Shown: positions 13,352-34,224 of the stretch, piece after piece
How positions within the stretch are numbered: position 1 is the stretch's first letter
Layout: each line of letters begins with the position of its first letter
Assembly: GCF_001625365.1 (NCBI RefSeq)
Contig: NZ_LJJF01000001.1
Coordinates: 5,884,501-5,948,500 of the forward strand
Direction: 5' to 3'
Length of the DNA stretch: 64,000 nt
DNA from: Streptomyces sp. MJM8645
GTDB taxonomy: Bacteria; Actinomycetota; Actinomycetes; Streptomycetales; Streptomycetaceae
Notes under the pieces: generated by a model
Databases searched by the model: none
Seen by the model: only the letters and a program-made list of their open reading frames with translations
What the model was told of the DNA's origin: nothing
Program-made: the position numbers and the translations under genes

Positions 13352-13811
13352 CTGATTCCTTGTTGCAGGGCCGAGTCGCTGGGCCGAACGGCGGGCCGGC
13401 CTGTACGCGGTCCGGCCGGGGCTTCAGGGCGCCGCGGCCGGGGTGGCCGGACGGGGTGACGCGGTGTCATCGTCCGGGCGGGGGTGCAGCACGGCCGCCG
13501 ACGGCAGGAACGCTATCAGTCCCAGGTGCCCTCATCGCAACATCAACTGACGATCTGTGGACGGGTGGTGACGATGGTGGAGGAGCCCGGGGGGAGTGTC
13601 CGCCGGCGGAAAGCCGCAGCTCACGTCGGTCGCGGGTGGCGCGTGGACGGCGCGTGGACGGCTCTCCGGGGGCCGGGAGAACCTCCCGGAGAGTCGTCAG
13701 GAACAGGTCAAGTCGCCGCCGTGCCGAACGTTCGCCCTCTCGGTTCGGGTGCCCGGCTCCGAGGGTGCCCGGCACCAAGGGCGTCCGGCTCCGAGGGCGC
13801 GCAGTACCGAT
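13352..13811. other. Gap between cvnA and the acyl-CoA dehydrogenase gene
   Basis: This gap holds the leader of cvnA on the - strand and the 3' flank of the acyl-CoA dehydrogenase gene. A weak promoter-like pair for cvnA may lie near 13511-13540 on the - strand (TTGCGA, 16 bases, TGATAG). A strong hairpin is at 13662-13693. Imperfect repeats of GGTGCCCGGC and CGGCTCCGAGGG lie around 13750-13800. No convincing gene is present. Confidence 0.5.
13662..13693 (-). terminator. Hairpin downstream of the acyl-CoA dehydrogenase gene
   Basis: CTCTCCGGG (13662-13670) is a perfect inverted repeat of CCCGGAGAG (13685-13693). Inside, CCGGGAG (13673-13679) can pair with CTCCCGG (13683-13689), so two hairpins compete for the same right arm. 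There is no T-run. Its place about 120 bases past the stop fits a terminator for the - strand gene. Confidence 0.55.
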
Positions 13812-21981: not shown

Positions 21982-22030
21982 TGTGGTTCCCCCCACTCGT
22001 CACCGGCGGTCCCGGTGAGTGGCGGTCATC

Positions 22031-22837
22031 CTACGATGTGATGTTCATGCCCCCTGTGAACGGGTGGTCCAACGCGTGCGCGAGGACCGTCGGCGCCGTC
22101 ACCAGGGACGGTCCGTACCAGGTCAGGTGGCGTCCGCTGACCAGCGCCGCCGGGACGCCGGGGAACGCCTCGGGGCCGTCCTGTGCCGTGAAGCGGTACG
22201 GCTCGTCCGGGAGGACCACCAACTCGGGTCGGCAGGCGAGCAGTTCGGGCAGCGGAACGGCCGGGTAGCGCTCGGCGTGTCCGGCGTGGACGAGCCGGAG
22301 GCCGAGGCGGCGCAGCAGGTCCCCGGCGAAGGTGTCGCGGCCCAGGACCATCCACGGGCGGCGCCAGACCGGAACGATCGCCCGCGGGCCGTCCGGCGGG
22401 CGCCGGACCGGGGCCCACGCTGCCTCGGCCTGGTCCAGCCAGTCCGGGCGCGGGAGCGCGCAGGCGGCGGTGAGCAGCCGGTCGAGCGAGCGGAACGCGT
22501 CGTCCAGGGTGCGGATGTCGGTGACCCAGACCGGCAGGCCGGCCGCCCGCAGCGCGTCCAGGTCGGGGCGCCGGTTCTCCTCGTCGTTGGCGAGGACGAG
22601 GTCCGGGGCGAGGGCGAGGATGCCGGGCACGTCCGGGTTCTTGGTGCCGCCGATCCTGGTGACCGCCAGGTCGGCCGGATGGCTGCACCAGTCGGTGGCG
22701 CCGACCAGCAGCCCGGGGGCGGTGGCGGCGACCGCCTCGGTCAGCGACGGCACCAGCGACACCACCCGGCGCGGCGGGCGCGGGCCGAACCGGACGGGCA
22801 GGTCGAGATCGTCCCGCAGGACGGTGGGATCGGCCAT
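22031..22837 (-). CDS. Cytosolic BtuF-like helical-backbone metal receptor protein
   Basis: The product has 268 residues with the fold of BtuF/FhuD-type binding proteins: RVVSLVPSLTEAVAA, LLVGATDWCSHPAD, KNPDVPGILALAPDLVLANDEEN and RPWMVLGRDTFAGDLLRRLG. These proteins normally bind cobalamin or siderophores outside the membrane. Here no signal peptide or lipobox is present, so it should be cytosolic. It is encoded divergently from a complete ABC importer of the same superfamily, about 400 bases away. It may chaperone or store the imported ligand; this is inference. It lies 50 bases upstream of the lipoprotein gene on the same strand. Confidence 0.82.
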   Translation of the reverse strand: MADPTVLRDDLDLPVRFGPRPPRRVVSLVPSLTEAVAATAPGLLVGATDWCSHPADLAVTRIGGTKNPDVPGILALAPDLVLANDEENRRPDLDALRAAGLPVWVTDIRTLDDAFRSLDRLLTAACALPRPDWLDQAEAAWAPVRRPPDGPRAIVPVWRRPWMVLGRDTFAGDLLRRLGLRLVHAGHAERYPAVPLPELLACRPELVVLPDEPYRFTAQDGPEAFPGVPAALVSGRHLTWYGPSLVTAPTVLAHALDHPFTGGMNITS

Positions 22838-23234
22838 CCGGCCACCCTACGCCGGGGGTCCGCGGACGGGCATCGGACGGGCGGCACGGGCATCGGACGG
22901 GCGATGGTCGGGCGGCGAACGGGCGGCGGATGGCGGGCGGGCGGACGGCGGGTGAACGGGCACCGGGCGGTGCGGAAATCCCCGGGAACCCCCCGGACGG
23001 TCCGGCCGACTACCTGGTCCGGGTTCGCACGACGGGCCCCTATGGCGTGTCTGACAATTCCCGCCGGGCGCGCGACGCCGGGCATCCCGCCTGGACGCAC
23101 CGGCGAAACGTCCAAGTACGACCCAGTACGAGGACGCTTCGCCGGCGCGCCCAGCCGGGCGCCCAACGCCGCGCGCTGATCCGCCGCGAATTGTCAGACA
23201 CGCCCTGGCACGATCACCCACCAGGAGAATTGTC
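22838..23234. other. Divergent control region of the ABC importer
   Basis: The gap separates the BtuF-like gene (- strand) from the importer operon (+ strand). Its left part has repeated GGGC(G/A) sequence, including an exact 18-bp repeat (ACGGGCATCGGACGGGCG at 22866 and 22886). Its right part is the 161-bp near-palindrome described separately. AGGAGA lies six bases before the lipoprotein ATG. No B12 box or other known riboswitch signature was found. Confidence 0.6.
23044..23204. repeat. 161-bp near-palindrome with 17-bp terminal inverted repeats (MITE-like)
   Basis: GGCGTGTCTGACAATTC (23044-23060) is an exact inverted copy of 23188-23204. Inside, further segments pair in order: GCGCGCG (23068-23074) with 23170-23176, CCGGCGAA (23100-23107) with 23138-23145, CGTCC with GGACG, and GTAC with GTAC around a 6-base centre. 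The whole element can fold into one long imperfect hairpin. It contains no gene and has no obvious target-site duplication. It ends 30 bases before the importer start codon, so it may be a small transposon derivative, a regulatory structure, or both. Confidence 0.8.
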
Positions 23235-24347
23235 ATGCGCCCTCGCGTTGTCTGCGGAATCGCGGCCGCCGTCGCCCTGTTCGCCACGGCCTGCGGAAGC
23301 GGCGCCGGAAGCGGTGCCGGAAACGGCGGCGGGGGAGGCGGAGAGCGCGGCGCGGCCGGCGCCGCCCAGACCGCCCCGGCCGGCGGCTACCCCGTCAAGG
23401 TGGCCGACTGCGCGGACCGGGAGACCACCATCGCCAAGGCCCCCGCCAAGATCGTCACCAGCAATGCCGCCGCCCTGGAGATACTGCTCCAACTCGGCGC
23501 GGGCGACCGGGTGATCGGTACCGGCTTCCCGCCCGGCAAGGGCACCCTCCCGCCGGCCCTGGCCGAACAGGGCGCCAAGGTGCCGGTGCTCGGCGACAAG
23601 ACGATCCCCAAGGAGAAGCTGCTCGGCTCCGGCGCCGACCTCTACGTCGACACCTTCGGCGCGATGCCGATGATGGGCGGCGGCGCCACCGGGCCCAGCG
23701 AGGAGGAGTTCGCGGCAGCCGGCATCCAGCACGTCTATCTCCTCTCGACCGCCTGCGCCGGCACCCCCAAGGCCGCCAAGGCGCCGCGCACCGACCTGTC
23801 CGGGGTCGAGAACGACATCCGCCGCCTCGGCGCGGTCACCGGCACGGCCGCCCGCGCGGAGGAACTCGTCACCGGGATGGAGAAGCAGGTCGGCGAGGTG
23901 CGCACCGCCCTCGCCGGCGTCGCGCAGGCGCAGCGGCCCGGCTACTTCGTCTTCGACTTCGACGCCGGCACCAAGCAGCCGGTGGCGGTCTGCGGCCGGC
24001 AGGTCGCCAACGCGGTGATCACCCAGGCCGGCGCCCGCAACGTGTTCGCCGACTGCGACGCCGACTTCAAGCCCGGCTCCTGGGAGGACGTCGTCGCCAA
24101 GAACCCGGACTGGATCCAGCTCGCCGTCCGCAACCGGGGCAGCGAGGAGGCCACCCGCAAGGCCTTCGACGACGCCGAGGCGTTCCTGCGCGGGTTCCCC
24201 GCGACCCAGGGCCTGAAGGCCGTCCAGGAGGGCCACTTCGTGCGGCTCGGCTCCGAGGTCACCACCATCGCGGGCGTGCGCAACGCCGACGCCGTCCGGC
24301 AGATCGCCGCCACCGTCCACCCCGACCTCGTCAAGAACGGGCAGTAG
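23235..24347 (+). CDS. ABC importer substrate-binding lipoprotein (metallophore/cofactor type)
   Basis: The product is a 370-residue lipoprotein. The signal peptide ends at C20 (FATAC) and a Gly/Ser-rich linker follows. The binding domain is of the FhuD/BtuF/FepB class: APAKIVTSNAAALEILLQLG, DRVIGTGFPPG, KEKLLGSGADLYVDTFG and GSWEDVVAKNPDWIQLAV. Unusually, a Cys occurs in STACAGTP and more in VADCADRE and FADCDADF. It captures the ligand outside the membrane for the permease and ATPase encoded directly downstream (3-base gap, then GTGA overlap). Close families carry iron-siderophores, cobalamin or, by proposal, the F420 precursor. The sequence does not decide among them. The start is supported by AGGAGA six bases upstream. 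Confidence 0.88.
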   Translation: MRPRVVCGIAAAVALFATACGSGAGSGAGNGGGGGGERGAAGAAQTAPAGGYPVKVADCADRETTIAKAPAKIVTSNAAALEILLQLGAGDRVIGTGFPPGKGTLPPALAEQGAKVPVLGDKTIPKEKLLGSGADLYVDTFGAMPMMGGGATGPSEEEFAAAGIQHVYLLSTACAGTPKAAKAPRTDLSGVENDIRRLGAVTGTAARAEELVTGMEKQVGEVRTALAGVAQAQRPGYFVFDFDAGTKQPVAVCGRQVANAVITQAGARNVFADCDADFKPGSWEDVVAKNPDWIQLAVRNRGSEEATRKAFDDAEAFLRGFPATQGLKAVQEGHFVRLGSEVTTIAGVRNADAVRQIAATVHPDLVKNGQ

Positions 24348-24350
24348 ACG

Positions 24351-25439
24351 GTGACGTCGGCCGTCTCCGCCGAACGGCGCGAGGAGCCCCGCCCGGCCCG
24401 CACCCTGCGGGCCGGGCCGCTGGCCGTCGCGCTGACCGCCGCCCTGGTGCTCGCGCTGACCGCCGCCGTGTCGTTCGGCGCGGTGGACATCCCGCCCGGC
24501 GAGGTCTGGTCGGTGGTCGCCCACCACCTCACCGGGCGGGCCCCCGAACCCGGCACCCGCGACCTCATCGTCTGGCAACTGCGCGTCCCGCGCGCCCTGC
24601 TGGCGGCGACGGTCGGGGCCGGGCTCGGCCTGGTCGGCACGGCCGTGCAGGCCCTGGTCCGCAACCCGCTCGCCGATCCCTACCTGCTCGGCATCTCCTC
24701 CGGCGCCTCCCTCGGGGCGGTCGCGGCGATCGTCCTCGGCACCTCGCTCGGCCTCGACCTCGCCTTCGGCAGCGCGCTCGGCCTCACCGTCTCCCTGGCG
24801 GCCTTCGCCGGCGCGCTCGCCGCGTTCTCCCTGGTCTGGCTGGCGGCCCGGCGCGGCGGCGGCTTCTCCCCGCTGCGCCTGGTCCTCGCGGGCATCGCCA
24901 TCGCCCAGTTCCTCGGCGGCATCACCAGCTACCTCGTCCTGCAGACCCGCGACGAGCAGCAGACTCGTGGCGTGCTGTTCTGGCTGATGGGTAGTCTCGG
25001 CGGCGCGGTCTGGGCCCAACTCGCTGTCCCCGCCGTCGCGGTGGTGCTCGGGCTGGCCCTGCTCCAGGCCCGTGCCCGCGGGCTCAACGCGATGCTCATG
25101 GGCGACGAGACGGCCGCCGGGCTCGGCGTGGACGTCACCCGGCTGCGCTGGGAGGTCTTCGTCGTCACCAGCGTGCTGACCGGCGTGCTGGTCGCGGTCT
25201 CCGGCGCGATCGGCTTCGTCGGACTGATGGTGCCGCACGTCTGCCGCCTGCTCGTCGGCGGCGACCACCGGCGCCTGCTGCCGCTGTCCGCGCTCACCGG
25301 CGCACTGCTGCTGGTCGTGGTCGACACCGTGGCCCGCACCGCGCTGGACGGCCAGGAACTGCCGATCGGCGTGGTCACCGCCGTCCTCGGCGCCCCCACC
25401 CTGCTCTACCTGCTGGACCGACGACTGGAGCGCACGTGA
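24351..25439 (+). CDS. FecCD-family ABC importer permease
   Basis: The product is a 362-residue integral membrane protein of the BtuC/FecCD family with about ten transmembrane helices. The family motif RNPLADPYLLGISSGAS is intact, as are GFVGLMVPHVCRLLVGGDHR and the C-terminal GAPTLLYLLDRRL. It forms the membrane channel, normally as a homodimer, for the ligand delivered by the lipoprotein. The GTG start is 3 bases after the lipoprotein stop. The stop overlaps the ATPase start (GTGA), so all three importer genes are one translational unit. Confidence 0.92.
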   Translation: MTSAVSAERREEPRPARTLRAGPLAVALTAALVLALTAAVSFGAVDIPPGEVWSVVAHHLTGRAPEPGTRDLIVWQLRVPRALLAATVGAGLGLVGTAVQALVRNPLADPYLLGISSGASLGAVAAIVLGTSLGLDLAFGSALGLTVSLAAFAGALAAFSLVWLAARRGGGFSPLRLVLAGIAIAQFLGGITSYLVLQTRDEQQTRGVLFWLMGSLGGAVWAQLAVPAVAVVLGLALLQARARGLNAMLMGDETAAGLGVDVTRLRWEVFVVTSVLTGVLVAVSGAIGFVGLMVPHVCRLLVGGDHRRLLPLSALTGALLLVVVDTVARTALDGQELPIGVVTAVLGAPTLLYLLDRRLERT

Positions 25440-26338
25440 GGATCGCCGTCGAGGACCTGAGCGTCACCCTGTCCGGGCGGGCGGTGGTGGCCGGCGTCCA
25501 CCTGGTCGCCGAGGAGGGGGAGATCGCCGGCCTGGTCGGGCCCAACGGCAGCGGCAAGTCCAGCCTGCTGCGCACCGTCTACCGGCACCTGCGGCCGAGC
25601 GCCGGGCGGGTGCTGCTGGCCGGGCGCGACCTGGCCGGGCTGCGCCCCGCGCAGTCCGCCCGGCACATCGCCGCGCTGCCGCAGGAGCGGGGCGGGGACT
25701 TCGAGTTGAGCGTCCGCGAAGTGGTCGCGATGGGCCGCACCCCCTACAAGCGGTCGTTCGCCGGCGACGACGCCGAGGACCACCGGATCACCGCCGACGC
25801 GCTGGCACGGGTCGGCATGGCGGACGCCGCCGACCGCCGCTTCGCCCAACTGTCCGGGGGCGAACGGCAACGGGTGCTGCTGGCCCGCGCGCTGGCCCAG
25901 CAGCCGGACGTCCTGGTGCTGGACGAGCCGACCAACCACCTGGACGTCCGGCACCAGGTCGAACTCCTCGCCCTGCTGCGGGACCAGCGCCGCACCACCC
26001 TGGTCGCGCTGCACGACCTCAACGCGGCCGCCTCCGTCTGCGACCGGCTGCACGTCCTGCACCGCGGCGCCCTGGTGGCCTCCGGGGCGCCGCGCGAGGT
26101 GCTGACCGCGGAGCTGCTGGCCGAGGTGTTCGGCGTCCGGGCGGCAGTGGTCGAACACCCGCTCACCGGTGACCCGTTGATCGCCTTCGACCACCGAACC
26201 CCGGCCGCCCCGACCCCGGCCGTCCCGACCGCCCCGGCTCCGGTGGAGGGTGCCGGGGCCGGGGCGGATGCTGGTGGGGCGGGGTTCGTCGGGTTGGACG
26301 CCGCCGGGGTGGAGCCCGCGCGTCAGAGCGCCTCGTAG
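25436..26338 (+). CDS. ABC importer ATP-binding protein (FecE/BtuD type)
   Basis: The product has 300 residues. Walker A is GPNGSGKSS, the signature is LSGGERQR, Walker B is VLVLDEPT and the switch His lies in ALHDLN. It powers the FecCD permease. About 60 C-terminal residues (Ala/Pro/Gly-rich, ending in VEPARQSAS) extend beyond the usual fold and are low complexity. The last 16 bases overlap the end of the convergent isonitrile synthase gene, so both transcripts must run through each other. No terminator separates the two operons. Confidence 0.92.
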   Translation: MRIAVEDLSVTLSGRAVVAGVHLVAEEGEIAGLVGPNGSGKSSLLRTVYRHLRPSAGRVLLAGRDLAGLRPAQSARHIAALPQERGGDFELSVREVVAMGRTPYKRSFAGDDAEDHRITADALARVGMADAADRRFAQLSGGERQRVLLARALAQQPDVLVLDEPTNHLDVRHQVELLALLRDQRRTTLVALHDLNAAASVCDRLHVLHRGALVASGAPREVLTAELLAEVFGVRAAVVEHPLTGDPLIAFDHRTPAAPTPAVPTAPAPVEGAGAGADAGGAGFVGLDAAGVEPARQSAS

Positions 26339-27345
26339 TGGCTCGGCCGGCCGTCGAGTTCGACCAGCCGGCCGCGCTGCGCGGCGTCCTCGCTGCGCAG
26401 CAACTCCCAGTCCCCGTCGGCGCGGTGGAGTACCGAGGAGTGCCAGGGCGTCATCCAGGCGTCGGCGGCCTCCAGCAGCCGGATGCCGAACTTCGGTGCG
26501 CCCGCCGGCTGCGGGTGGATGGACAGCCGGACCGACCGGGGGTGCTGCTCGGCGATCAACTCGCCCCAGGCGCGGCTGCGCTGGATCACCCCGTACGCGC
26601 GGCGGCGGCAGTCGCGCTGCAGGGCGGAGCGGGTGCCGGTGAAGCCGACGGTGTCGTCGGTCAGGAAGCGGGTGATGCCGCGGTAGAGCCGCAGGGTCTC
26701 CTCGTCCGTCAGCACCTGCTCGCGCAACTCCTCGACGCTCGGCGCGTACTGGGCGTGCACCCGGGCGCGCTTGTCGTCGTACGGCAGGTCGCCGAGGACG
26801 TCCCGCAGGTCGAAGGTGGCGAGGTGGGCGAGTTCCTCGCGGGCGATCATCGCCGTCAACTCGTCGGAGTACTCGTCGATGTGGTCGTCGGGGACGTGGA
26901 CGAGGTCGCCGAAGATGTGCCCGTCCGAGCAGATCAGGATCCGCGCGCCGGGCTCGTAGTACCCGCCGATCTCCGCGCAGAGCCCGTCGAGGAAGGTGAG
27001 CGACAGCCGTTCGCCCTCGTCGGGCAGGTGGCTGAGCACCTTCGCGGGGTTCGGCGACTTGCAGGGGAAGCCGGGCAGGGTGAAGAGGATCGGGTCGCCG
27101 GCGGTGATGAAGTCCTTCAACTGGGCCAGCTGGAACGGGAAATGCTCGGGCTTGGCGTCCAGCCCCGGGTCGGAGGCGCGGCGGTGCGGCAGCAGCAGGC
27201 CGAGGATCCGGGCGGCGAGCCGTGCGGCGTCCTGCTGGTCGGTGCCGCCCCCGGTGTTCGCGGGCTCCGGTGCGGGCTCCGGCGCGGGCGTGGGCGCAGG
27301 TGCGGTGTGGTGGTGGCGGGTGGAAACGGTGCCGGCGGGCGGCAT
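26323..27345 (-). CDS. Isonitrile (isocyanide) synthase, PvcA/IsnA/Dit1 family
   Basis: The product has 340 residues. After a 35-residue disordered Pro/Ala/His-rich start, the DIT1_PvcA domain fills the chain: HFPFQLAQLKDFITAGDPI, LPGFPCKSPNPAKVLSHLPD, LSLTFLDGLCAEIGGYYEPG, ILICSDGHIFGDLV and RSVRLSIHPQP. Known members convert the amino group of L-Tyr or L-Trp to an isonitrile using ribulose-5-phosphate as the carbon source; yeast Dit1 starts dityrosine formation. The start has GGAGG six bases upstream. It is followed upstream in the same direction by a P450 and an MFS exporter, which together make a small biosynthetic cluster. The amino-acid substrate cannot be read from the sequence; tyrosine is the likeliest. 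Confidence 0.9.
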   Translation of the reverse strand: MPPAGTVSTRHHHTAPAPTPAPEPAPEPANTGGGTDQQDAARLAARILGLLLPHRRASDPGLDAKPEHFPFQLAQLKDFITAGDPILFTLPGFPCKSPNPAKVLSHLPDEGERLSLTFLDGLCAEIGGYYEPGARILICSDGHIFGDLVHVPDDHIDEYSDELTAMIAREELAHLATFDLRDVLGDLPYDDKRARVHAQYAPSVEELREQVLTDEETLRLYRGITRFLTDDTVGFTGTRSALQRDCRRRAYGVIQRSRAWGELIAEQHPRSVRLSIHPQPAGAPKFGIRLLEAADAWMTPWHSSVLHRADGDWELLRSEDAAQRGRLVELDGRPSHYEAL

Positions 27346-27461
27346 GGTGGTCCTCCGTGGAAGGTGGTGCGGGCGTGGAGCGGACGCCGGGCCGACGTCG
27401 GGCGGACGTCGGCGGGCGGGCGCGGCCGCGGGGTGTTCGCAGGGTGGCCGAGGGCCCCGGC

Positions 27462-28832
27462 TCAGGCGCGCCGGTCGTAGCCGACGGGCAGCCGGTTGAC
27501 CCCGCGCGCCAGGACGGCGGGGATCCAGGCGAGGGAGTCCAGGTCCTCGTCGGCAGCCTCGGACGGGCGCAGTCCGGGCAGCCGGGTGAGCAGGGTGGCG
27601 ACGGCGGTCTGGAGTTCGGCCCGGGCCAGGGCGGCGCCGGGGCAGTAGTGGATGCCGTGGCCGAAGGCGAGATGGGCGTTGGGCGTGCGGTCGAGGTCGA
27701 GGCGGTCCGCGTCCGGGAACCGCGTCTCGTCCCGGTTGGCGGCGCACAGCGAGACGATCACCGAGTCGCCGGCCGGGACGGTGGTCCCGAACAGGTCTCC
27801 GTCCTCGGCGAGGAACCGCCAGGTGGTGAGCTCGAACGCGGCGTCGTGGCGCAGCAGTTCCTCCACCGCGCGGGCCAACAGGCCGGGGTCGTGGGCGGGC
27901 CCCTCGGAGAGGGAGTCGCGCAGCCGGGCGAGCTGGTCGGGGTGGCGCAGCAGCGTGATCAGCATGGTGGTGATCTGGTTGGTGACCGGCTCCTGGCCCG
28001 CGACCAACAGCTGGAACACCATGGAGTCCAGCTCCTCGCGGCTCAACTCGCCCGCGTCGTGGGCGGCGACGAGCCGGCCCAGCAGGTCGGCGCCGGCCGT
28101 GTCCGGGTCGTGCCGGTCGTGGCCATCGGAGGGGTTCCCGGCGCGCTTGTGGGCGACCACGTCGGCGATGTACGTCTGGAGGCCGCGCAGCCGCGCCTCG
28201 TACGCCGGACGGCCCGGATCGTGCGGGCCGACGGGCTGCACGACCTTGCCCCAGTCGCGGTCGAACCGCACCGCCAACTCGGCTGGCAGGCCGATCACTT
28301 CGGCGAGCACCCGGAACGGGAAGTGCGCCGCGAAGCCGGCCACCAGATCGGCGCCGCCGGTCTCGGGCAGTTCGTCGACCAGCGCGTCGGCCAGCTCCTG
28401 GAAGCGCGGGCGCAACGACTCCACCCGGCGCGGCGCGAAGGCGTCCAGGACGAGCCGGCGCATCGTGGTGTGCTTGGGCGGGTCCTGGTGCAGCAGGTGG
28501 ACCTGCAACTGGGAGTGCTGCGGCTCGGGCATGATCGACGCCAGCTTGTGCCAGTTCTCGTTGCCCAGTGCGTGGTTCTTGCCGAACCTGGGGTCGTTGA
28601 GGGTCTCGTGGGCGGCCTGGTAGCCGGTGACCAGCCAGGCGTGGATGCCGCTCGGGAACTCCACCCGGTGCACCGGCCCGGCCTCGCGCATCCGCCGGTA
28701 GAGCGGGTACGGGTCGCTCTTGTACGCGGGGCCGTACAGCGGTATGGGGTCCGGGAGTTGGTCGTACCCGTACGGGCAGCGCGGTTCGTCCGCCGGGTGG
28801 GCCGGCGCCGGATCGTGGACGGTGTCGGTCAT
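27462..28832 (-). CDS. Cytochrome P450 of the isonitrile cluster
   Basis: The product has 456 residues and is a soluble bacterial P450. The haem ligand is C397 in FGHGIHYCPGAALAR; the K-helix ExxR is EELLR. The I-helix reads VAGQEPVTNQ, with Pro where nearly all P450s have the oxygen-activating Thr (Thr252 of P450cam). Such loss is known in P450s with unusual chemistry, such as oxidative coupling. The gene lies between the isonitrile synthase (116 bases) and the MFS gene (118 bases) on one strand, and GGAGGA precedes its ATG. In yeast, Dit1 works with the P450 Dit2; in fungi, isonitrile synthases pair with P450s in xanthocillin clusters. It probably modifies or couples the isonitrile product. 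Confidence 0.9.
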   Translation of the reverse strand: MTDTVHDPAPAHPADEPRCPYGYDQLPDPIPLYGPAYKSDPYPLYRRMREAGPVHRVEFPSGIHAWLVTGYQAAHETLNDPRFGKNHALGNENWHKLASIMPEPQHSQLQVHLLHQDPPKHTTMRRLVLDAFAPRRVESLRPRFQELADALVDELPETGGADLVAGFAAHFPFRVLAEVIGLPAELAVRFDRDWGKVVQPVGPHDPGRPAYEARLRGLQTYIADVVAHKRAGNPSDGHDRHDPDTAGADLLGRLVAAHDAGELSREELDSMVFQLLVAGQEPVTNQITTMLITLLRHPDQLARLRDSLSEGPAHDPGLLARAVEELLRHDAAFELTTWRFLAEDGDLFGTTVPAGDSVIVSLCAANRDETRFPDADRLDLDRTPNAHLAFGHGIHYCPGAALARAELQTAVATLLTRLPGLRPSEAADEDLDSLAWIPAVLARGVNRLPVGYDRRA

Positions 28833-28950
28833 CTGCGGTGTTCCTCCGGTGGTGCGGGCATGGCGGGGTGCGGGCTCTCGGGTATGGGCTCTGGGGTACG
28901 GGCTCTGGGCATGCGGGCGTTGGGAGTTGGGGAGGCGCGGTCCGGCGGGC

Positions 28951-30324
28951 TCAGGTCCGTGGACGGCGGTGCAGGGCGAGCAGGGCCACGGCCGTCGCCG
29001 CGACCAGGGCGGCCAGGGCGATGCCCGTCCGGGTGCCGGTGGTGGCGCGGTCGCCGGCCAGCGCGGCGGCGCCGGCCAGGGCCGGGCCGAGGGCGAAGCC
29101 CAGGCTGCGGGCCAGTTGGACGGCGGAGCCCGCGGTGGCGAGCTTCCCGGGGGGCGAGGCGGTCATCACCAGGGCCTGGGTGGGGCCACCGTTGAGGCCC
29201 ATCCCGACACCGGCCAGGGCGAGCCGCCAGGCGATGTCGGCGGCGGACCAGCCGGTGTCCAGCGGGACGAGCAGCGCCAGGCCGAGGGTGGTGACGGCGG
29301 CGCCGGCGAGCGCGGTCGGGCGGGCGCCCCAGCGGTCGGCCAGCCGTCCGCCGACCCGGCCGGCCAGCACCATGCCGAGCGGGAAGGCCAGCATGGTGAG
29401 CGCGGTGGCGGTGGCGCTCTCGCCGCCCGGACCGCGCAGGTGCTGGGCGAGCAGGTAGTGGCAGGCCGCGAAGCCGGCGGCGAGGGCCAGCACCGACGCG
29501 TTGACCCCGACGGTTCCGGCGGCCCGCAGCACCTCGGCGACCGGCCTGCCCCCGGGGCGGCGCAGCCAGACCAGCACCAGAGGGGCGGCGGGCAGCGCCA
29601 GCAGCAGCCACAGCGGCGCCTCCGGGGCCAGGGTCAGTGCGAGCAGCACGGCGGCGACGGCCGCGCCTATCAGGGCGGCGTCGCCGAGCGACGCCCGGTC
29701 GGGCGGGCGCAGGCGGCCTCGCCGCGGGGCGTACCGGCGCACGATCAGCACGGCGGCCAGGCAGACCGGCAGCTTGATCAGGAAGACCGCCCGCCAGCCG
29801 AAGTGGTCCAGTAGCAGGCCGCCGATGACCGGCCCGGTGACGGCGCCGAGCGGGCCGAGCGTCGCCGGGATGCTCATCGCCCGTCCGCGCGATTCGGGGC
29901 GGACGGAGGTGGCGGCCAGCACCGGCATCAGGACGAACAGCACCGCGCCGAAGGCGCCCTGGAGTAGTCGGGCGGCGATCAGCCAGCCCGCCCAGGGGGC
30001 GAGGGAGGCCAGCACGCTGCACGCGGCGAAGCAGCTGACGGCGAGCAGCAGCGCCGAGCGGGTGCCCACCTGGTCCAGCCAGCGCCCGGCGGGCAAGAGG
30101 AGTGCCACCAGCGGGAGTTGGTAGCCGAGGGTGGCCCACTGGGCGACCCCGGCGGACACGTGCAGGCTGGCCGAGATGTCGGTGAGGGCCAGGTTGACCA
30201 CGTTCATGTCGAGCATCGCGACGAACGAGAGCAGCCCGGCGGCCACGACCAGGATCCACCGGTCTGCCGGTTCTGCCTGACTGTCCATCAACGTAGCGGC
30301 GGTCAGCGGCTGTTGCGCTGCCAT
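28951..30324 (-). CDS. MFS exporter of the isonitrile cluster
   Basis: The product is a 457-residue major facilitator of the drug:H+ antiporter type with about 12-14 helices. Motif A-like GRWLDQVGTRSAL and the N-terminal MLDMNVVNLALTDISA, which marks this exporter group, are present. ATG 30324 is chosen because GGAGGG precedes it by five bases. It is the promoter-proximal gene of the three-gene set (MFS, P450, isonitrile synthase) and probably exports the product or gives self-protection. The yeast dityrosine cluster also contains an MFS transporter, Dtr1. Its start lies about 150 bases from the heptamer repeat element at 30472-30540. Confidence 0.88.
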   Translation of the reverse strand: MAAQQPLTAATLMDSQAEPADRWILVVAAGLLSFVAMLDMNVVNLALTDISASLHVSAGVAQWATLGYQLPLVALLLPAGRWLDQVGTRSALLLAVSCFAACSVLASLAPWAGWLIAARLLQGAFGAVLFVLMPVLAATSVRPESRGRAMSIPATLGPLGAVTGPVIGGLLLDHFGWRAVFLIKLPVCLAAVLIVRRYAPRRGRLRPPDRASLGDAALIGAAVAAVLLALTLAPEAPLWLLLALPAAPLVLVWLRRPGGRPVAEVLRAAGTVGVNASVLALAAGFAACHYLLAQHLRGPGGESATATALTMLAFPLGMVLAGRVGGRLADRWGARPTALAGAAVTTLGLALLVPLDTGWSAADIAWRLALAGVGMGLNGGPTQALVMTASPPGKLATAGSAVQLARSLGFALGPALAGAAALAGDRATTGTRTGIALAALVAATAVALLALHRRPRT

Positions 30325-30471
30325 GAAGTCCCTCCGTTGCCCGACTGCTGTCCCGGACACCGCCTCGGCGGCGGGGTCCGGTACAGCAGTCGGAGGCGCG
30401 GGGGCTCCAGTTCCGAACATGTGAAGGAATTTTCGGACGGACAGACGGGGGCGGCGGACGGATGGCAACCG

Positions 30472-30540
30472 ACAGCAGACAACTAACAACTAACAACTAA
30501 CAGATTTCGAAATCTGTTATCTGTTAGTTGTCATCTGTTA
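30472..30540. repeat. Heptamer-array hairpin A at the 3' end of the sigma factor gene
   Basis: The left arm has five 7-bp units (ACAGCAG, ACAACTA three times, ACAGATT). The right arm has four (ATCTGTT, ATCTGTT, AGTTGTC, ATCTGTT). The core AACAGATTTCGAAATCTGTT (30499-30518) is a perfect 20-bp palindrome. It is strikingly AT-rich and lies 19 bases past the sigma factor stop. It belongs to the same family as the elements at 41271, 48796 and 57064, and probably terminates transcription. Confidence 0.85.
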
Positions 30541-30558
30541 CCCGCTACCTGCCCCCGC

Positions 30559-31122
30559 TCAGCAGGCCGCTGCGAGTTCCCCGCCCTCGGCCGCGCGGAG
30601 CCGGGCTATCAGCTCCTCCCGGGCGCGGGCGACTCGGGAGCGCACGGTGCCGATCGGGCAGCCGGCGACCTCGGCCGCCTCGGCGTAGCTCAGGCCGACC
30701 ATCTGGGTGAGGACGAAGGCCTCCCGCCGCTGGGCGGGCACCCGGTCGAGCAGGTCCCCGAGCGCGACGCCGTCCTCGAACCCGGCTGCCGGTTCGGCCC
30801 CCTGCCGCTCCGCCGCCTCCTGCCAGTCCGGCAGCGCCGCGCAGCGCGGTCGGGCGGCGGCCGTCCGGTACCGGTCGATCACCGTGCGCCGGGCGATCGA
30901 CAGCAGCCAGGTGCGGGCCGAGGAGCGGCCGGCGAACGCGGGCAGGCCGCGCAGCGCGCGCAGGAAGGTCTCCTGCGCGAGGTCGTCGGCGGACTGGACG
31001 TCGGTGAGGTGGGCGACGAACCGCCAGACGTCCCGCTGGGTGGCGCGGACGAAGGCCTCGACGTCCGGGGCCCGGCCCGCGCGGGCGGTCAGTGCGAGCG
31101 CGGTGAGCTGCTCGTCATCCAC
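30559..31122 (-). CDS. ECF-type RNA polymerase sigma factor
   Basis: The product has 187 residues. Region 2 carries DVWRFVAHL, SADDLAQETFLRALRGL and RTWLLSIARRTVIDRYR. Region 4 carries the helix-turn-helix GLSYAEAAEVAGCPIGTVRSRVARAREEL. GTG 31122 is preferred because GGGAGG lies five bases upstream; longer starts lack a ribosome site. The zinc-finger anti-sigma gene is divergent, with only 55 bases between the starts, instead of downstream as in most such pairs. The C-terminal Cys is the last residue. Targets are unknown; the Met/His-rich membrane protein nearby suggests a metal or envelope response. Confidence 0.92.
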   Translation of the reverse strand: MDDEQLTALALTARAGRAPDVEAFVRATQRDVWRFVAHLTDVQSADDLAQETFLRALRGLPAFAGRSSARTWLLSIARRTVIDRYRTAAARPRCAALPDWQEAAERQGAEPAAGFEDGVALGDLLDRVPAQRREAFVLTQMVGLSYAEAAEVAGCPIGTVRSRVARAREELIARLRAAEGGELAAAC

Positions 31123-31177
31123 GGTGGCCTCCCACCCGGCCGGTCCCACCGTGAGGGCAGTGCGGGACGATGGTCGT

Positions 31178-31447
31178 ATGAGATGCGCGCAGTTCCGTAC
31201 CGCCCTGTCGGCCCGGCTCGACGGCGAACCGACCGGACTGTCGGGTGGCCGGCTGGACGGGCACGTCGCGCGCTGCGCCGGTTGCCGTGCGTGGCTGGAG
31301 CGGGCCGAGCAACTGCGCGGCCGCGTCCGGGCGAGCGCCGCCGTCGGCCCGTCGGACGAGTGGTCGGCCCGCTTGCTGGACGGACTCGGCGTGCGGGGGC
31401 TCGGGGGCGGTCAGGCTCCGGACGGGCCGGAGGCCGTGGAGCGGTAG
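31178..31447 (+). CDS. Zinc-finger (zf-HC2) anti-sigma factor
   Basis: The product is a short soluble protein of 89 residues. It has the zinc-binding anti-sigma pattern: C3 near the N-terminus and HVARCAGCRAWL (HxxxCxxC) around residues 29-40. No membrane helix follows, so this is the cytosolic, redox- or metal-responsive kind, like RsrA. It should bind the ECF sigma factor encoded divergently and release it when zinc is lost or the cysteines are oxidised. The ATG at 31178 is weakly supported by the purine-rich GGGACGATGG upstream. Confidence 0.85.
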   Translation: MRCAQFRTALSARLDGEPTGLSGGRLDGHVARCAGCRAWLERAEQLRGRVRASAAVGPSDEWSARLLDGLGVRGLGGGQAPDGPEAVER

Positions 31448-31753
31448 GACGGTGGCGCCGGCCCAAGCCGGTGCGCCGTCGTAGTCAGGCATGCGAAGGT
31501 CCTGAGGGGAGGGCTGGGAGCGGCGCCACCCGAGGCGGCGCCGCCGGCGTCCATGGGACTTCCGCGCGGCCCGCGGCGCCTCCACGGAGGAGGCGGCGGG
31601 CGGGCGCGGGTCCGGGCCCTGGCGGCACGGCGGCGAAGGCGCGGCCGAGCGGCAGGGCGACCTGCCCGCCGAGCGAACCCCGTGGGCCCTGCGGTCCCCG
31701 GCGGCGGTGGGCTGCCGGGGGCGGTAGGCGCAGGAGTGGGGACGGCGGGCGCG
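31448..31753. other. Convergent gap after the anti-sigma gene
   Basis: This 306-base gap lies between two convergent stops. It contains one good hairpin (31454-31477) and many short GC palindromes such as GGCGGCGCCGCC. No supported gene is present. Confidence 0.5.
31454..31477. terminator. Hairpin after the anti-sigma gene
   Basis: GGCGCCGGC (31454-31462) pairs with GCCG and GCGCC (31467-31477) around a CCAA loop, with a two-base bulge on the right side. It starts 7 bases past the anti-sigma stop. Confidence 0.6.
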
Positions 31754-32731
31754 TCAGCAGGCGAGGGCGAGCGCCGGCGGGCCGCGCCGGACCACGGCAT
31801 GGGTGAGCAGCACCGACCGGGATGGCCGGGTCCGGCCGCCGGTGGGCCGGGGTGCAGCCGGCGGGCGGTAGCCGAAGGGGCGCGCGAACAGCGCCAGCAG
31901 CGGGAGCACCAGCACTCCCGCGACCACGGTGCCGAGCGCGCCGAGCAGGTCGAAGAGCCGGACCAGCGCGGCGTCACCGCGCCACAGCAGCAGCGCGCAG
32001 GCCAGCGCGGCGAGCGCGTGGGCGGCGATCATCCCGAAGGACATCCCGTGCGCCATGTCGTGTGCCATGCCGTGTGCCGTCCCGGAGGGCATCCCGTGTG
32101 CGGCGGATGCTCCGGACAGGCCCGACGTACCCGGCATGCCGGGCATCCCCGCCATCCCGGCCGCGTCCAGCGCCGTCCCATCGGCCGAAGCCGAAACCGA
32201 AGCCGAAGCCGAAGCGGACGCGGACCCGGAGACCGACGCGGACGTGGATACCGATACCGGGGCGGAAACCACACCTGCCGCCGTCCCGTGGTGCATGCCC
32301 GCCATGGTGTGCAGGCCGTTGGCGGCGGGCGGGACGTCCGGGTCGAGGCCCGCCATCCGGGCCAGCTCGGCGGGGGAGAGCCCGCCGGGGATCCGCTCGG
32401 GGTTGCAGAGCAGCAGCGCGGCCCAGTCCGTGGTGGCGAGCCGGCCGAGACCGCCGCCTCCCCGGCCGAGCGCCGCGGCCTGTTCGAACAGCAGGTGCAG
32501 CGCGCTCTGGGCCGCGACCATCCAGGCGCTGATCGCGCCGAGCCCGCGCCGCTTGCCGGCGAGCAGCCAGGTCAGACCGAGGACGGCCCCGAACGCGCCG
32601 ATCAGCACCGGTGGTGAGACCCCGGCTCCGGCCATGGCGACGTGCGCCGCGGCGGCCAGCGCCACGCACAGCGCGGCGAAGACCACGGCGCGCAGCAGGC
32701 GGATCCGGTCGGTCATCACGATGGCACTCAT
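31754..32731 (-). CDS. Met/His-rich integral membrane protein (possible copper handling)
   Basis: The product has 325 residues. Three N-terminal transmembrane helices (LLRAVVFAALCVALAAAAHV, PPVLIGAFGAVLGLTWLLAG and an ISAWMVAAQSALHLLFEQ segment) are followed by a large loop. A C-terminal pair of helices begins at IAAHALAALACALLLW. The loop has two Met/His clusters: HTMAGMHHG, and a longer run with MAGMPGMPG and HGMAHDMAHGMSFGM. Between them is a Ser/Ala/Val repeat. Clusters of Met and His of this kind bind copper in CopA/CopC/PcoA-type proteins. It resembles DUF5134-type proteins, but I do not claim the family firmly. ATG 32731 is used; 32716 is possible. It is near the sigma/anti-sigma pair, which could control it. 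Confidence 0.78.
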   Translation of the reverse strand: MSAIVMTDRIRLLRAVVFAALCVALAAAAHVAMAGAGVSPPVLIGAFGAVLGLTWLLAGKRRGLGAISAWMVAAQSALHLLFEQAAALGRGGGGLGRLATTDWAALLLCNPERIPGGLSPAELARMAGLDPDVPPAANGLHTMAGMHHGTAAGVVSAPVSVSTSASVSGSASASASASVSASADGTALDAAGMAGMPGMPGTSGLSGASAAHGMPSGTAHGMAHDMAHGMSFGMIAAHALAALACALLLWRGDAALVRLFDLLGALGTVVAGVLVLPLLALFARPFGYRPPAAPRPTGGRTRPSRSVLLTHAVVRRGPPALALAC

Positions 32732-32973
32732 CGTCGCACCCGCCCCGCCCGGCCCGGACCGCACCCTCCGGTATTGGCCGGTTCCACCCCGTGAGACCAT
32801 GCCCGGCCCCGTGCCTCCGTGTGTCGAGAGTCCGGCCCGGCCGCCGAACCAACCCGTTCGTACGACCATCGACGCGGTTTGACATCACCCCCCGCTTGCT
32901 CACTAAATGTGCACACCCCGGTACCGATAGTGGTTGCCGGGCGGACGCCGAACGCGAAGCAGGAGGCCCGGCC

Positions 32974-34224
32974 ATGGAGACCTCGACCGGCTTGGCGGCC
33001 CCCGCCGCCGACCTCGCCGACCCCCGCTTCTGGCAGCTGCCCGCCCCCGCCCGCGCGGCCGCCTTCGCCGAACTGCGTCGACGCCCCGCGCCGGTGTTCT
33101 TCGGCGATCCCGCCGCCGGCCGGGGCTTCCACGCGCTGGTCCGCCACGCCGACGTGGTCGAGGCCAGCCGGACCCCCGCGGTGTTCCTCAGCGGCCCCGG
33201 CGTCACCACCCCGGAACCGCCCCGCTGGGTCCGGCTGGTGTTCGGCGACTCGATGGTCAACCTCGACGACCCCCGGCACGCCCAACTGCGCAGGATCGTC
33301 TCGCGAGCCTTCACCCCCCGGCTGCTCGGCCAGGTCGAGGAGGACATCCGCCGCGTCGCCACCCGCCTGGTCGACGACGTCGAGCGGCGGCGGCCGGAGG
33401 ACTTCGTCACCTCCGTGGCCGCCGAGCTCCCCTTCCAGGTGATCTGCACCATGATGGGGATCCCGGAACATCCGCGCCGAATGATCCTGGACCAGGTCAA
33501 CCACGCCTCCGAGAACATCGGCGTGGCCCGCCCGCTGCGCCGCCGGATCCGGATGCCCGGGCGCGGGCTGCTGGCGCTGGCCCGCATGCAGGGCATGGTC
33601 GCCTCGATCGGTCGTGAGCGTCGCCGCCGGCCCACCGAGGACCTGATCTCAGCCCTGGTCACCGCCGACGTGGACGGCCGCCGGCTCACCGGACGCGAAC
33701 TCGGCGCGTTCTTCTCCCTGCTGCTGGTCGCCGGCGTGGAGACCACCCGCAACGCGCTCGCCCACGGCCTGCACCTGCTGACCGCGCACCCGGAGCAGCG
33801 CGCCCTGCTGCTCGCGGACCTCGACGGGGGGCTCGGCGGTGCGGTCGACGAGATCATCCGCCACGCCACGCCGATCATCCACTTCCGCCGGACCCTCGCC
33901 GTCGACCACGAGCTCGGCGGCCTCGGGGGCCCGCTGCTGCGCGCGGGGGAGAAGGTCGCCCTGTTCTTCGGCTCGGCCAACCGGGACGAGACGGTCTTCC
34001 CCGACCCGGACGCGTTCGACATCACCCGCACGCCCAACCCCCACCTCGGCTTCGGCGGCGGAGGGCCGCACTACTGCATCGGGGCGCACCTGGCCCGGCA
34101 GGAGATGAAGGTGCTGTTCCGCGAGCTGTTCGCCCGGCTGCCCGAGGTGCGGTCGGTCGGCGAGCCGGACATCGTGCCGTCCAACTTCGACCACCGGGTC
34201 CGGTCGCTGCGCTTCACGTTCTGA
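32974..34224 (+). CDS. Cytochrome P450 (CYP124/125/142-like)
   Basis: The product has 416 residues. The haem ligand is C368 in FGGGGPHYCIGAHLAR. The I-helix VAGVETTRNA has the normal acid-alcohol pair and the TTRN extension seen in mycobacterial CYP124/CYP125-type enzymes, which oxidise the ends of sterol or methyl-branched lipid chains. The ATG has AGGAGG seven bases upstream. No redox partner gene is adjacent. A flavin cholesterol oxidase is encoded 27 kb away, but nothing else from sterol catabolism is present, so the substrate remains open. The gene converges on the lactonase-like gene with a small hairpin between them. Confidence 0.9.
   Translation: METSTGLAAPAADLADPRFWQLPAPARAAAFAELRRRPAPVFFGDPAAGRGFHALVRHADVVEASRTPAVFLSGPGVTTPEPPRWVRLVFGDSMVNLDDPRHAQLRRIVSRAFTPRLLGQVEEDIRRVATRLVDDVERRRPEDFVTSVAAELPFQVICTMMGIPEHPRRMILDQVNHASENIGVARPLRRRIRMPGRGLLALARMQGMVASIGRERRRRPTEDLISALVTADVDGRRLTGRELGAFFSLLLVAGVETTRNALAHGLHLLTAHPEQRALLLADLDGGLGGAVDEIIRHATPIIHFRRTLAVDHELGGLGGPLLRAGEKVALFFGSANRDETVFPDPDAFDITRTPNPHLGFGGGGPHYCIGAHLARQEMKVLFRELFARLPEVRSVGEPDIVPSNFDHRVRSLRFTF

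What the first reader, a model, noticed from the sequence alone, without database searches (positions are those of the whole stretch)
26323..30324. Compact isonitrile synthase-P450-MFS cluster resembling yeast DIT1-DIT2-DTR1
Seen: three same-strand genes encode a PvcA/Dit1-family isonitrile synthase, a P450 and a drug-antiporter-type MFS protein. Known: yeast uses Dit1 plus the P450 Dit2 and the MFS protein Dtr1 for dityrosine; fungi pair isonitrile synthases with P450s for xanthocillin-type products. Inference: this is a minimal bacterial isocyanide cluster without the usual PvcB oxygenase, possibly coupling two aryl isonitriles.
Basis: partly seen in the sequence, partly recalled or inferred. 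Interest (0 to 1): 0.82.

Follow-up and report, generated by a model that had tools for sequence, protein, structure and literature searches.

The report
Copper-scavenging isonitrile gene set, hazimycin type
A soil bacterium's three genes for making and exporting a tyrosine-based isonitrile turn out to be part of a probable copper-gathering system, in which a neighbouring importer, a distant helper enzyme and a copper pump share one promoter sequence that probably answers to a copper-starvation switch.

Summary
The three genes are real: isonitrile synthase (ICS), P450 and MFS exporter, in a Kitasatospora-type genome. The "minimal three-gene" reading is too narrow. A convergent SBP-FecCD-ATPase importer abuts the synthase; a SigC-like ECF sigma gene, a zinc-finger anti-sigma gene and a Met/His-rich membrane protein gene lie upstream. 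Among 106 PF05141 loci, 87 carry the P450, always next to the ICS; 76 of these carry the importer and 72 the sigma gene. A strict promoter, GGAAC-N17-CGACT, precedes MFS in 49/60 and SBP in 65/72 upstream regions (controls 5/488). It also precedes an unlinked AsnB amidotransferase (6 of 6 unlinked copies examined) and, in this genome, a copper ATPase-PCuAC pair. [quoted passage not shown] I infer a hazimycin-type diisonitrile chalkophore: tyrosine isonitrile, P450 coupling, amidation by AsnB in trans, export by MFS, re-import by ABC, copper-starvation control. Chemistry and sigma-promoter recognition are inferred. I did not find the shared promoter, split amidotransferase or covarying leader hairpin in print, but the key paper could not be read.

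The parts
26323..27345 (-). isonitrile (isocyanide) synthase, PvcA/Dit1 family
   Evidence: PF05141 256 bits; PvcA 3e59 E 1.4e-80; only PF05141 match in the genome
27462..28832 (-). cytochrome P450, proposed phenol-coupling enzyme; I-helix AGQEP where relatives have AGxET
   Evidence: PF00067; alignment to 5cje shows Pro at the Thr position; AGQ[ED]PVT in 84 of 87 loci, 3 not matched by the expression used
28951..30324 (-). MFS exporter, DHA2/EmrB type
   Evidence: PF07690 156 bits; EmrB model 128 bits, below cut-off 230
30347..30387 (-). leader hairpin at the predicted 5' end of the MFS-P450-ICS transcript
   Evidence: fold -34.6 kcal/mol for 30325-30388, z -2.65; covariation on all 49 distinct leaders: 63 double-change cells against 25.6 shuffled, 0/500 shuffles reach it
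30388..30414 (-). ECF-type promoter GGAAC-N17-CGACT of the MFS-P450-ICS operon
   Evidence: same motif upstream of MFS in 49 of 60 upstream regions, controls 5 of 488
22985..23011 (+). ECF-type promoter GGAAC-N17-CGACT of the importer operon
   Evidence: upstream of SBP in 65 of 72 upstream regions
23235..24347 (+). substrate-binding lipoprotein of the importer (proposed Cu-chalkophore receptor)
   Evidence: PF01497 66 bits; in 45/45 ICS+ and 3/25 ICS- genomes of the genus
24351..25439 (+). FecCD-type permease
   Evidence: PF01032 323 bits
25436..26338 (+). ABC ATPase; its end overlaps the end of the ICS gene by 16 bases, convergent
   Evidence: PF00005 115 bits; coordinates
30559..31149 (-). 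ECF sigma factor, SigC-like (start 31149 or 31122)
   Evidence: SigC model NF007231 196 bits (cut-off 219, not reached); next best in the genome 61 bits
31178..31447 (+). zinc-finger anti-sigma factor (Hx3Cx2C), divergent from the sigma gene
   Evidence: zf-HC2 PF13490 32.1 bits, cut-off 22.2; similar stretch divergent within 200 nt of sigma in 50 of 87 loci
31754..32731 (-). Met/His-rich membrane protein, candidate copper sensor partner (function inferred; start could be 32869)
   Evidence: no Pfam family; cluster 7, taken by position and tblastn to be its relatives, in 59 of 87 loci

Best explanation
The genes make, export and recover a hazimycin-type copper-binding diisonitrile (a chalkophore). 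Steps: (1) the PvcA-type synthase converts the amine of tyrosine to an isonitrile; (2) the P450 joins two phenol rings, like Dit2 in logic; (3) an AsnB-type amidotransferase encoded elsewhere in the genome (G000:C2:757948-759756) turns carboxylates into amides, in an order not known; (4) the MFS protein exports the product; (5) outside, the two isonitriles bind copper; (6) the lipoprotein-FecCD-ATPase importer brings the complex back; (7) both operons, the distant AsnB gene and a Cu P-type ATPase-PCuAC operon share the promoter GGAAC-N17-CGACT, most likely read by the adjacent SigC-like sigma factor when copper is scarce and held back by the divergent zinc-finger anti-sigma, perhaps with the Met/His-rich membrane protein as sensor. 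Shown here: gene identities, co-conservation, shared promoter sequence, AsnB in trans with that promoter, conserved leader hairpin. Inferred: substrate, coupling, amidation, copper as the metal, sigma-promoter pairing and the sensing step.
For: Families. Co-conservation: 87 of 106 PF05141 loci have the P450 and in 87 of 87 it is adjacent to the ICS; ATPase + FecCD in 76 of 87 (84 permease genes: 64 downstream on the opposite strand, 18 upstream on the same, 2 upstream opposite; some may be paralogues); sigma in 72; MFS in 64; AsnB in 36; Cu ATPase or PCuAC in 35. Phyletic pattern over 70 genomes of the genus: SBP 45/45 ICS+ against 3/25 ICS-, sigma 44/45 against 5/25, AsnB of this type 20/45 against 0/25 (Fisher 2.7e-15, 6.2e-12, 2.2e-5, uncorrected for phylogeny). 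Promoter: 49/60 MFS, 65/72 SBP, 5/488 controls, spacer 17 only; 165 matches in 1658 kb of P450-type loci against 2 in 307 kb of the 16 other ICS loci and 0 in 8 further loci, and 29 in the 9.23 Mb genome. Unlinked AsnB has the motif in 6 of 6 genomes examined. The fourth site in this genome precedes a Cu P-type ATPase (TIGR01511 460 bits, cut-off 397) and PCuAC. The sigma is the genome's only strong SigC-like protein. Precedent: M. tuberculosis SigC prevents copper starvation and is held to transcribe ctpB and the isonitrile lipopeptide operon directly (PMC7924339, abstract and passages); C. glutamicum sigma-C regulon is activated by copper deprivation (PMC7337898, passages). [quoted passage not shown]
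Against: No metabolite or copper-binding data here. The Matsuda 2024 paper was not held; its content and the hazimycin structure are recalled. The importer's best or near-best NCBIfam models are 'F420-0' transporters, all below cut-off, and one solved SBP relative is a haem binder, so metal and ligand are not fixed by homology. AsnB of this type is absent at the cut-off used from 25 of 45 ICS+ genomes, among them the closest relative G159, so amidation is not universal. The window sigma falls below the SigC model's cut-off, and no motif lies upstream of the sigma genes themselves (0 of 70). A test in four unnamed, mycobacterial-type genomes did not link this promoter to isonitrile genes: in three it precedes a PPE gene of what looks like an ESX-3-type locus, and the copper ATPases found there lack it. 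8 of 87 loci show no importer gene within the stretch held, one of them only 3.7 kb long. One ICS of 61% identity (L193) has the motif and copper genes but no P450 nearby. Some copies look broken (L187/L017, L188, L195, L196).
Confidence: 0.77

Rival explanations
1. A bacterial counterpart of yeast DIT1-DIT2-DTR1: a dityrosine-type material for the spore wall, with the MFS protein moving the precursor.
For: Same Pfam family as Dit1, a P450 partner and an MFS partner; [quoted passage not shown]
Against: A conserved importer and sigma factor in most relatives, copper genes in many; promoter shared with a Cu ATPase and PCuAC; nearest solved P450s are bacterial CYPs; 25 of 70 genomes of this genus, sporulating by general knowledge, lack the ICS.
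Confidence: 0.06
2. An isonitrile antibiotic cluster; the neighbouring importer is an unrelated siderophore, B12 or F420-0 transporter that happens to lie close by.
For: Importer models 'F420-0' and B12 score among the highest, though all below cut-off; isonitriles are often antibacterial (general knowledge).
Against: Importer kept near the ICS in 76 of 87 loci through rearrangement; SBP in 45/45 ICS+ against 3/25 ICS- genomes; the same promoter motif on both operons.
Confidence: 0.1
3. A metallophore for a metal other than copper (iron, zinc, nickel).
For: FecCD-type importers mostly serve iron complexes or B12 (model names; general knowledge); the same motif precedes an ESX-3-like locus, a metal-linked system by recall, in three mycobacterial-type genomes.
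Against: Cu P-type ATPase and PCuAC share the promoter in this genome and the neighbourhood in 35 of 87 loci; SigC precedents concern copper (PMC7924339, PMC7337898, passages); hazimycins are titled chalkophores.
Confidence: 0.07
4. Same pathway, but in the window strain the product stays a free di-acid because no amidotransferase is in the cluster.
For: No AsnB beside the cluster; G159, the closest relative, has none at the cut-off used.
Against: The window genome has the pathway-type AsnB at 79% identity (next paralogue 51%) on another contig, about 90-115 nt behind the exact shared promoter.
Confidence: 0.15

Closest known systems
Hazimycin biosynthetic cluster of actinobacteria (Matsuda et al. 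2024, J Antibiot 77:228; reference entry seen, text not held)
   Same: By title an actinobacterial chalkophore pathway; recalled: diisonitrile of a 3,3'-bityrosyl diamide, found in Kitasatospora, importer and exporter genes around the biosynthetic genes.
   Different: Not comparable gene by gene here. In the window genome the AsnB is unlinked; whether the published cluster has AsnB, the sigma factor or the promoter I could not check.
SigC regulon and isonitrile lipopeptide (nrp) chalkophore system of Mycobacterium tuberculosis (PMC7924339, abstract and passages)
   Same: SigC-type sigma factor, isonitrile metal chelator, Cu P-type ATPase in one regulon.
   Different: There the isonitrile is made by an NRPS-type pathway, not PvcA-P450; a shared promoter sequence was not shown.
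Yeast DIT1-DIT2(-DTR1)
   Same: Dit1/PvcA-family enzyme plus a P450, with ring coupling of tyrosine in logic.
   Different: P450 nearest to bacterial CYPs, DHA2-like exporter, importer and copper-type neighbours; no spore-wall evidence.
PvcA-PvcB clusters (paerucumarin, rhabduscin type; recalled)
   Same: PvcA-type synthase.
   Different: No PvcB oxygenase among the neighbours scanned; P450 instead.
Fungal xan (xanthocillin) clusters
   Same: [quoted passage not shown] P450 partner and dimeric aryl diisonitrile recalled.
   Different: Different ICS clade (same passage) and host kingdom; fungal regulation.
SF2768 diisonitrile chalkophore of Streptomyces thioluteus (mentioned in PMC7924339)
   Same: Isonitrile chalkophore in an actinomycete.
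   Different: NRPS-type pathway (recalled).

Membership tests
Hazimycin-type chalkophore cluster | PvcA-type isonitrile synthase adjacent to a P450 (expected from the recalled structure) | tested here: met
   adjacent in 87 of 87 P450-type loci and in the window
Hazimycin-type chalkophore cluster | Amide-forming enzyme (AsnB type; need for it inferred from the recalled diamide structure) | tested here: met
   met only in trans: G000:C2:757948-759756, 79% identity, shared promoter
Hazimycin-type chalkophore cluster | Exporter and importer genes beside the biosynthetic genes (recalled from the abstract) | tested here: met
   MFS and SBP-FecCD-ATPase
Hazimycin-type chalkophore cluster | Protein-by-protein orthology with the published cluster | not testable with these tools
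   paper not held; its sequences not identified
Hazimycin-type chalkophore cluster | Product is a diisonitrile that binds copper | not testable with these tools
   needs chemistry
L-tyrosine isonitrile synthase PvcA (NF045653) | Score over the curated cut-off of 600 bits | tested here: not met
   282 bits: same family, not that equivalog
DIT1_PvcA (PF05141) | Score over the gathering cut-off | tested here: met
   256 against 26.4 bits
SigC (NF007231) | Score over the curated cut-off of 219 bits | tested here: not met
   196 bits, but best in the genome by 135 bits; described as SigC-like
SigC regulon | Promoter read by SigC | tested here: inconclusive
   the motif co-occurs with the sigma gene; the mycobacterial-type comparison gave no isonitrile target
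Yeast DIT cluster | P450 orthologous to Dit2 (CYP56) | not tested
   Dit2 sequence not used; best solved relatives are bacterial CYPs
Yeast DIT cluster | DTR1-type exporter | tested here: inconclusive
   best model is DHA2/EmrB, 128 bits, below its cut-off; Dtr1 as DHA1 is recalled
PvcA-PvcB clusters | PvcB-type Fe/2-oxoglutarate oxygenase beside PvcA | tested here: not met
   none among the 10 neighbouring proteins scanned

The most novel reading that the evidence does not exclude
A copper-starvation regulon defined by one strict promoter (GGAAC-N17-CGACT) and run by a SigC-like sigma factor with a zinc-finger anti-sigma and a Met/His-rich membrane sensor unites, across Kitasatospora and Streptomyces, synthesis, export and import of a PvcA-P450 chalkophore with, in some genomes, an amidotransferase encoded far from the cluster and, in this one, a Cu ATPase-PCuAC pair. 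The biosynthetic mRNA begins with a conserved hairpin, mostly 15-18 bp, that may set its stability or translation. Some relatives keep only sigma and importer, so they may take up the chalkophores of neighbours.
Probability: 0.5. Interest if true: 0.72.

Novelty: new member of a known kind. Interest (0 to 1): 0.55.

Why it matters
It turns a 'cryptic isonitrile cluster' into a testable copper-acquisition circuit: a predicted sigma factor, a predicted promoter, a predicted importer and a predicted missing enzyme, all named by coordinate. The promoter finds pathway parts that neighbourhood-based cluster mining misses (the unlinked AsnB). If the sigma factor proves to read it, SigC-like factors would govern chemically unrelated isonitrile chalkophores in different actinobacteria.

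Tried and rejected
Yeast-like spore-wall role: rejected as main reading because of the importer, copper genes and shared promoter. Mtb-type SigC consensus (recalled SSSAAT/CGTSSS): not enriched upstream of MFS, SBP or sigma genes. Sigma autoregulation: no motif upstream of sigma genes (0 of 70). Copper ATPases found in those genomes lack the motif within one mismatch on the right side of the gene (one one-mismatch hit lies inside the gene on the other strand). Rfam: no match at gathering threshold in 22000-33000. The AT-rich inverted repeat at 30479-30538 was taken to be the end of the sigma transcript, not an operator; not tested. First covariation count used 25 chosen leaders (24 of 49 MFS leaders plus 1 AsnB leader), leaving out 9 near-duplicates, 5 imperfect stems and 11 more distant leaders; repeated on all 49 MFS leaders with a weaker but clear result. 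The 5' hairpin count against mononucleotide shuffles (44 of 49 against 91 of 245) is only moderately discriminating; SBP leaders gave 49 of 63 against 110 of 315, P450 leaders 5 of 20 against 30 of 100, AsnB leaders 1 of 4 against 8 of 20, and the window's own SBP leader folds no better than shuffles (z -0.44). Not run: predicted structures and fold searches, judged not decisive. The row list was cut in the output; counts come. The ICS+ count of 45 of 70 in the genus is my own count of the same-genus rows.


Full report
OBSERVATION. The three genes exist as described, on the minus strand: isonitrile synthase 26323-27345, P450 27462-28832, MFS 28951-30324. The synthase scores 256 bits against PF05141 (cut-off 26.4) and matches PvcA 3e59 at E 1.4e-80 over residues 55-338 of 340. 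It is the only PF05141 match in the genome. The window lies in a 9.23 Mb genome; the two best named matches of the synthase are in Kitasatospora records.

A lipoprotein-FecCD-ATPase importer (23235-26338, plus strand) runs convergently into the synthase; the ends of the two genes overlap by 16 bases. Upstream of the MFS gene lie an ECF sigma gene (30559-31149, minus), a divergent zinc-finger anti-sigma gene with an Hx3Cx2C motif (31178-31447, plus; zf-HC2 32.1 bits, cut-off 22.2) and a Met/His-rich membrane protein gene (31754-32731, minus). The sigma factor is the genome's best match to the SigC model by a wide margin, 196 bits against 61 for the next, though below that model's curated cut-off of 219. 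I call it SigC-like.

CO-CONSERVATION. In one search, 97 of 394 Streptomycetaceae genomes had PF05141; class-wide it was 17 of 394. I fetched 100 regions around hits and added six named loci, 106 in all, after dropping 11 duplicates. 87 of 106 contain a close relative of the P450 (over 400 bits), and in 87 of 87 it is adjacent to the synthase on the same strand. Three more have the synthase at a contig edge or broken. The remaining 16 have synthases of 38-49% identity and no such P450; one P450-type locus, L018, also has a synthase of only 48%. Among the 87: ATPase plus FecCD in 76, sigma gene in 72, MFS in 64, the Met/His-rich membrane protein cluster in 59, an AsnB-type amidotransferase in 36, a Cu P-type ATPase or PCuAC in 35. 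Of 84 permease genes in these loci, 64 lie downstream on the opposite strand, 18 upstream on the same strand and 2 upstream on the opposite strand (some may be paralogues), so the importer has been kept through rearrangement. In a different family (G714, locus L186) the order is sigma-AsnB-P450-ICS followed by FecCD-ATPase, with two motif copies. An exception is L193, a synthase at 61% identity with motif, sigma and copper genes but no P450 found. Some copies look broken.

PRESENCE AND ABSENCE. Over 70 genomes of the genus, 45 have the synthase by my count. The importer SBP (E <= 1e-60) is in 45 of 45 with it and 3 of 25 without. The sigma factor (E <= 1e-30) is in 44 of 45 and 5 of 25; in some, such as G087, G163 and G205, it lies away from the synthase. 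The AsnB of the cluster type (79-100% identity) is in 20 of 45 and 0 of 25. Fisher values are 2.7e-15, 6.2e-12 and 2.2e-5; they ignore shared ancestry. G014 and G111 keep sigma and importer but no synthase, which could be import-only strains; G081 has an importer in pieces.

A SHARED PROMOTER. A count of all five-plus-four-base dyads in upstream regions gave GGAAC-N17-CGAC as the top pair for both MFS and SBP (I had looked at one GGAAC/CGAC site by eye before). With the full motif GGAAC-N17-CGACT: MFS 49 of 60, SBP 65 of 72, P450 14 of 63, AsnB 4 of 21, Cu ATPase 1 of 28, sigma 0 of 70, controls 5 of 488; no other spacer from 14 to 20 gives any hit for MFS or SBP. The P450-type loci hold 165 copies in 1658 kb, 84 of 87 loci at least one and 67 two or more; the 16 other ICS loci hold 2 in 307 kb, and 8 further loci none. 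In the whole window genome there are 29 copies, fewer than the reversed control (40), so the motif is not common in itself. By a simple gene finder 11 of the 29 are intergenic. Four of these stand before: the importer operon (window 22985-23011), the MFS-P450-ICS operon (window 30414-30388), an AsnB gene on another contig (C2:759871-759897; gene C2:757948-759756), and a small Met/His-rich gene followed by a Cu P-type ATPase and PCuAC (C1:516651-516677). The other seven intergenic copies have no evident pathway gene. Five further genomes of the genus have the AsnB unlinked; with the window genome, 6 of 6 carry the exact motif 66-125 nt upstream of the AsnB match (114 nt for the window genome by the match). 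This is the strongest evidence that the window's pathway includes an amidotransferase encoded elsewhere.

LEADER HAIRPIN. The predicted MFS transcript begins with a hairpin just after the -10 element and before the ribosome-binding site (window 30387-30347). The stretch 30388-30325 folds at -34.6 kcal/mol, z -2.65. Among 49 distinct MFS leaders 44 have a 5' hairpin of at least 12 bp (shuffled 91 of 245). On all 49 leaders 84.2% of cells pair (shuffled 75.9%) and 63 cells carry double changes (shuffled 25.6), with 0 of 500 shuffles as high on either. A chosen set of 25 gave 95.5%. No Rfam family matches. Its role (mRNA stability or translation) is a guess.

CHEMISTRY. The P450 has Pro in place of the usual I-helix Thr: AGQ[ED]PVT in 84 of 87, 3 not matched by the search expression; the alignment to 5cje shows Thr to Pro. 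This fits a phenol-coupling rather than a classical oxygen-inserting P450 but does not prove it. The unlinked AsnB is above the asparagine synthase cut-off (464 against 267 bits). From memory, hazimycins are 3,3'-bityrosyl diisonitriles with two carboxamides; this would need exactly ICS, coupling P450 and amidotransferase. That structure comes from no call.

LITERATURE. The reference list of PMC11085572 (read as found passages) cites Matsuda et al. [quoted passage not shown] The paper is not held; from memory its abstract reports the pathway in a Kitasatospora strain, copper binding and nearby importer/exporter genes. So the class is known. PMC7924339 (abstract and passages): M. tuberculosis SigC prevents copper starvation; ctpB and the isonitrile lipopeptide operon are held to be its direct targets. 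PMC7337898 (passages): the C. glutamicum sigma-C regulon responds to copper deprivation. PMC10153163 (passages): fungal ICS clusters, xan and crm up under copper starvation; dit makes dityrosine. PMC6338062 (passages) gave nothing on the SigC consensus. In the listings I saw no title or abstract opening that describes a sigma-controlled promoter for such clusters; these cover only the held open-access library, and (chalkophore + ECF sigma + Streptomyces) returned PMC7924339 alone.

RESULTS AGAINST. Of the 55 copies in those genomes only the 30 with a fetched locus were looked at. So that SigC itself reads this motif is unproven. 8 of 87 loci have no importer gene in the stretch held. AsnB of this type is missing at the cut-off from 25 of 45 ICS+ genomes of the genus, including the closest relative.

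VERDICT. A real, well-conserved gene set, best read as a hazimycin-type copper chalkophore system with its own importer and a SigC-like copper-starvation control. The class is known; the promoter-defined regulon with an unlinked amidotransferase and the leader hairpin are what I would test next.

Noticed in passing
G000:C2:757948-759756 (L154:8949-10784 -): Pathway-type AsnB far from the cluster, between genes that look by eye like a nitrilase and an XRE-type regulator, with the exact shared promoter; unlinked also in G181, G161, G073, G201, G189 (L204-L208).
   Followed up: yes
G000:C1:516651-519698 (L198:4652-7699 +): Shared motif before a small Met/His-rich protein, a Cu P-type ATPase and PCuAC.
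   Followed up: yes
L199 (G014), L201 (G111): Genomes with sigma factor and importer but no isonitrile synthase: possible import-only strains. The exact motif stands before the importer in L199, none was found in L201.
   Followed up: partly
L202 (G102): Synthase-less genome with the sigma gene, a Cu ATPase-PCuAC pair and a Met/His-rich protein; motif copies lie upstream of the Met/His-rich gene, of the Cu ATPase and of an ABC-type gene.
   Followed up: partly
L193:9380-10619: Synthase (61% identity) without a P450 but with two motif copies upstream, next to Cu ATPase, PCuAC and sigma.
   Followed up: partly
L239, L240, L241: In three mycobacterial-type genomes the motif lies before a PPE gene heading what looks like an ESX-3-type locus; in two of them metal-importer-like genes lie upstream (by eye).
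   Followed up: partly
L242:5565-6917 +: In one mycobacterial-type genome the SigC frame is open upstream into a zinc-finger-like, hydrophobic, Met/His-rich stretch, recalling the separate anti-sigma and Met/His-rich proteins of the window.
   Followed up: no
L196:8427-9858: Remnants of a window-type MFS-ICS cluster in G143, which also has another cluster with AsnB.
   Followed up: no
L123, about 6108-6326 - (13476-13694 in my reversed copy): 72-residue Cys-rich protein (CGNCNCGCP) family in 10 of 87 loci, no Pfam or NCBIfam match.
   Followed up: no
22031-22837: TroA-like helical backbone metal receptor gene (NF038402, 335 bits) divergent from the importer, kept in 20 of 87 loci.
   Followed up: no
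32974-34224: Second P450, about 33-37% identical to the cluster P450, kept in close Kitasatospora loci; probably plain synteny.
   Followed up: no
30479-30538: 30-base AT-rich inverted repeat between the sigma gene end and the MFS promoter.
   Followed up: no
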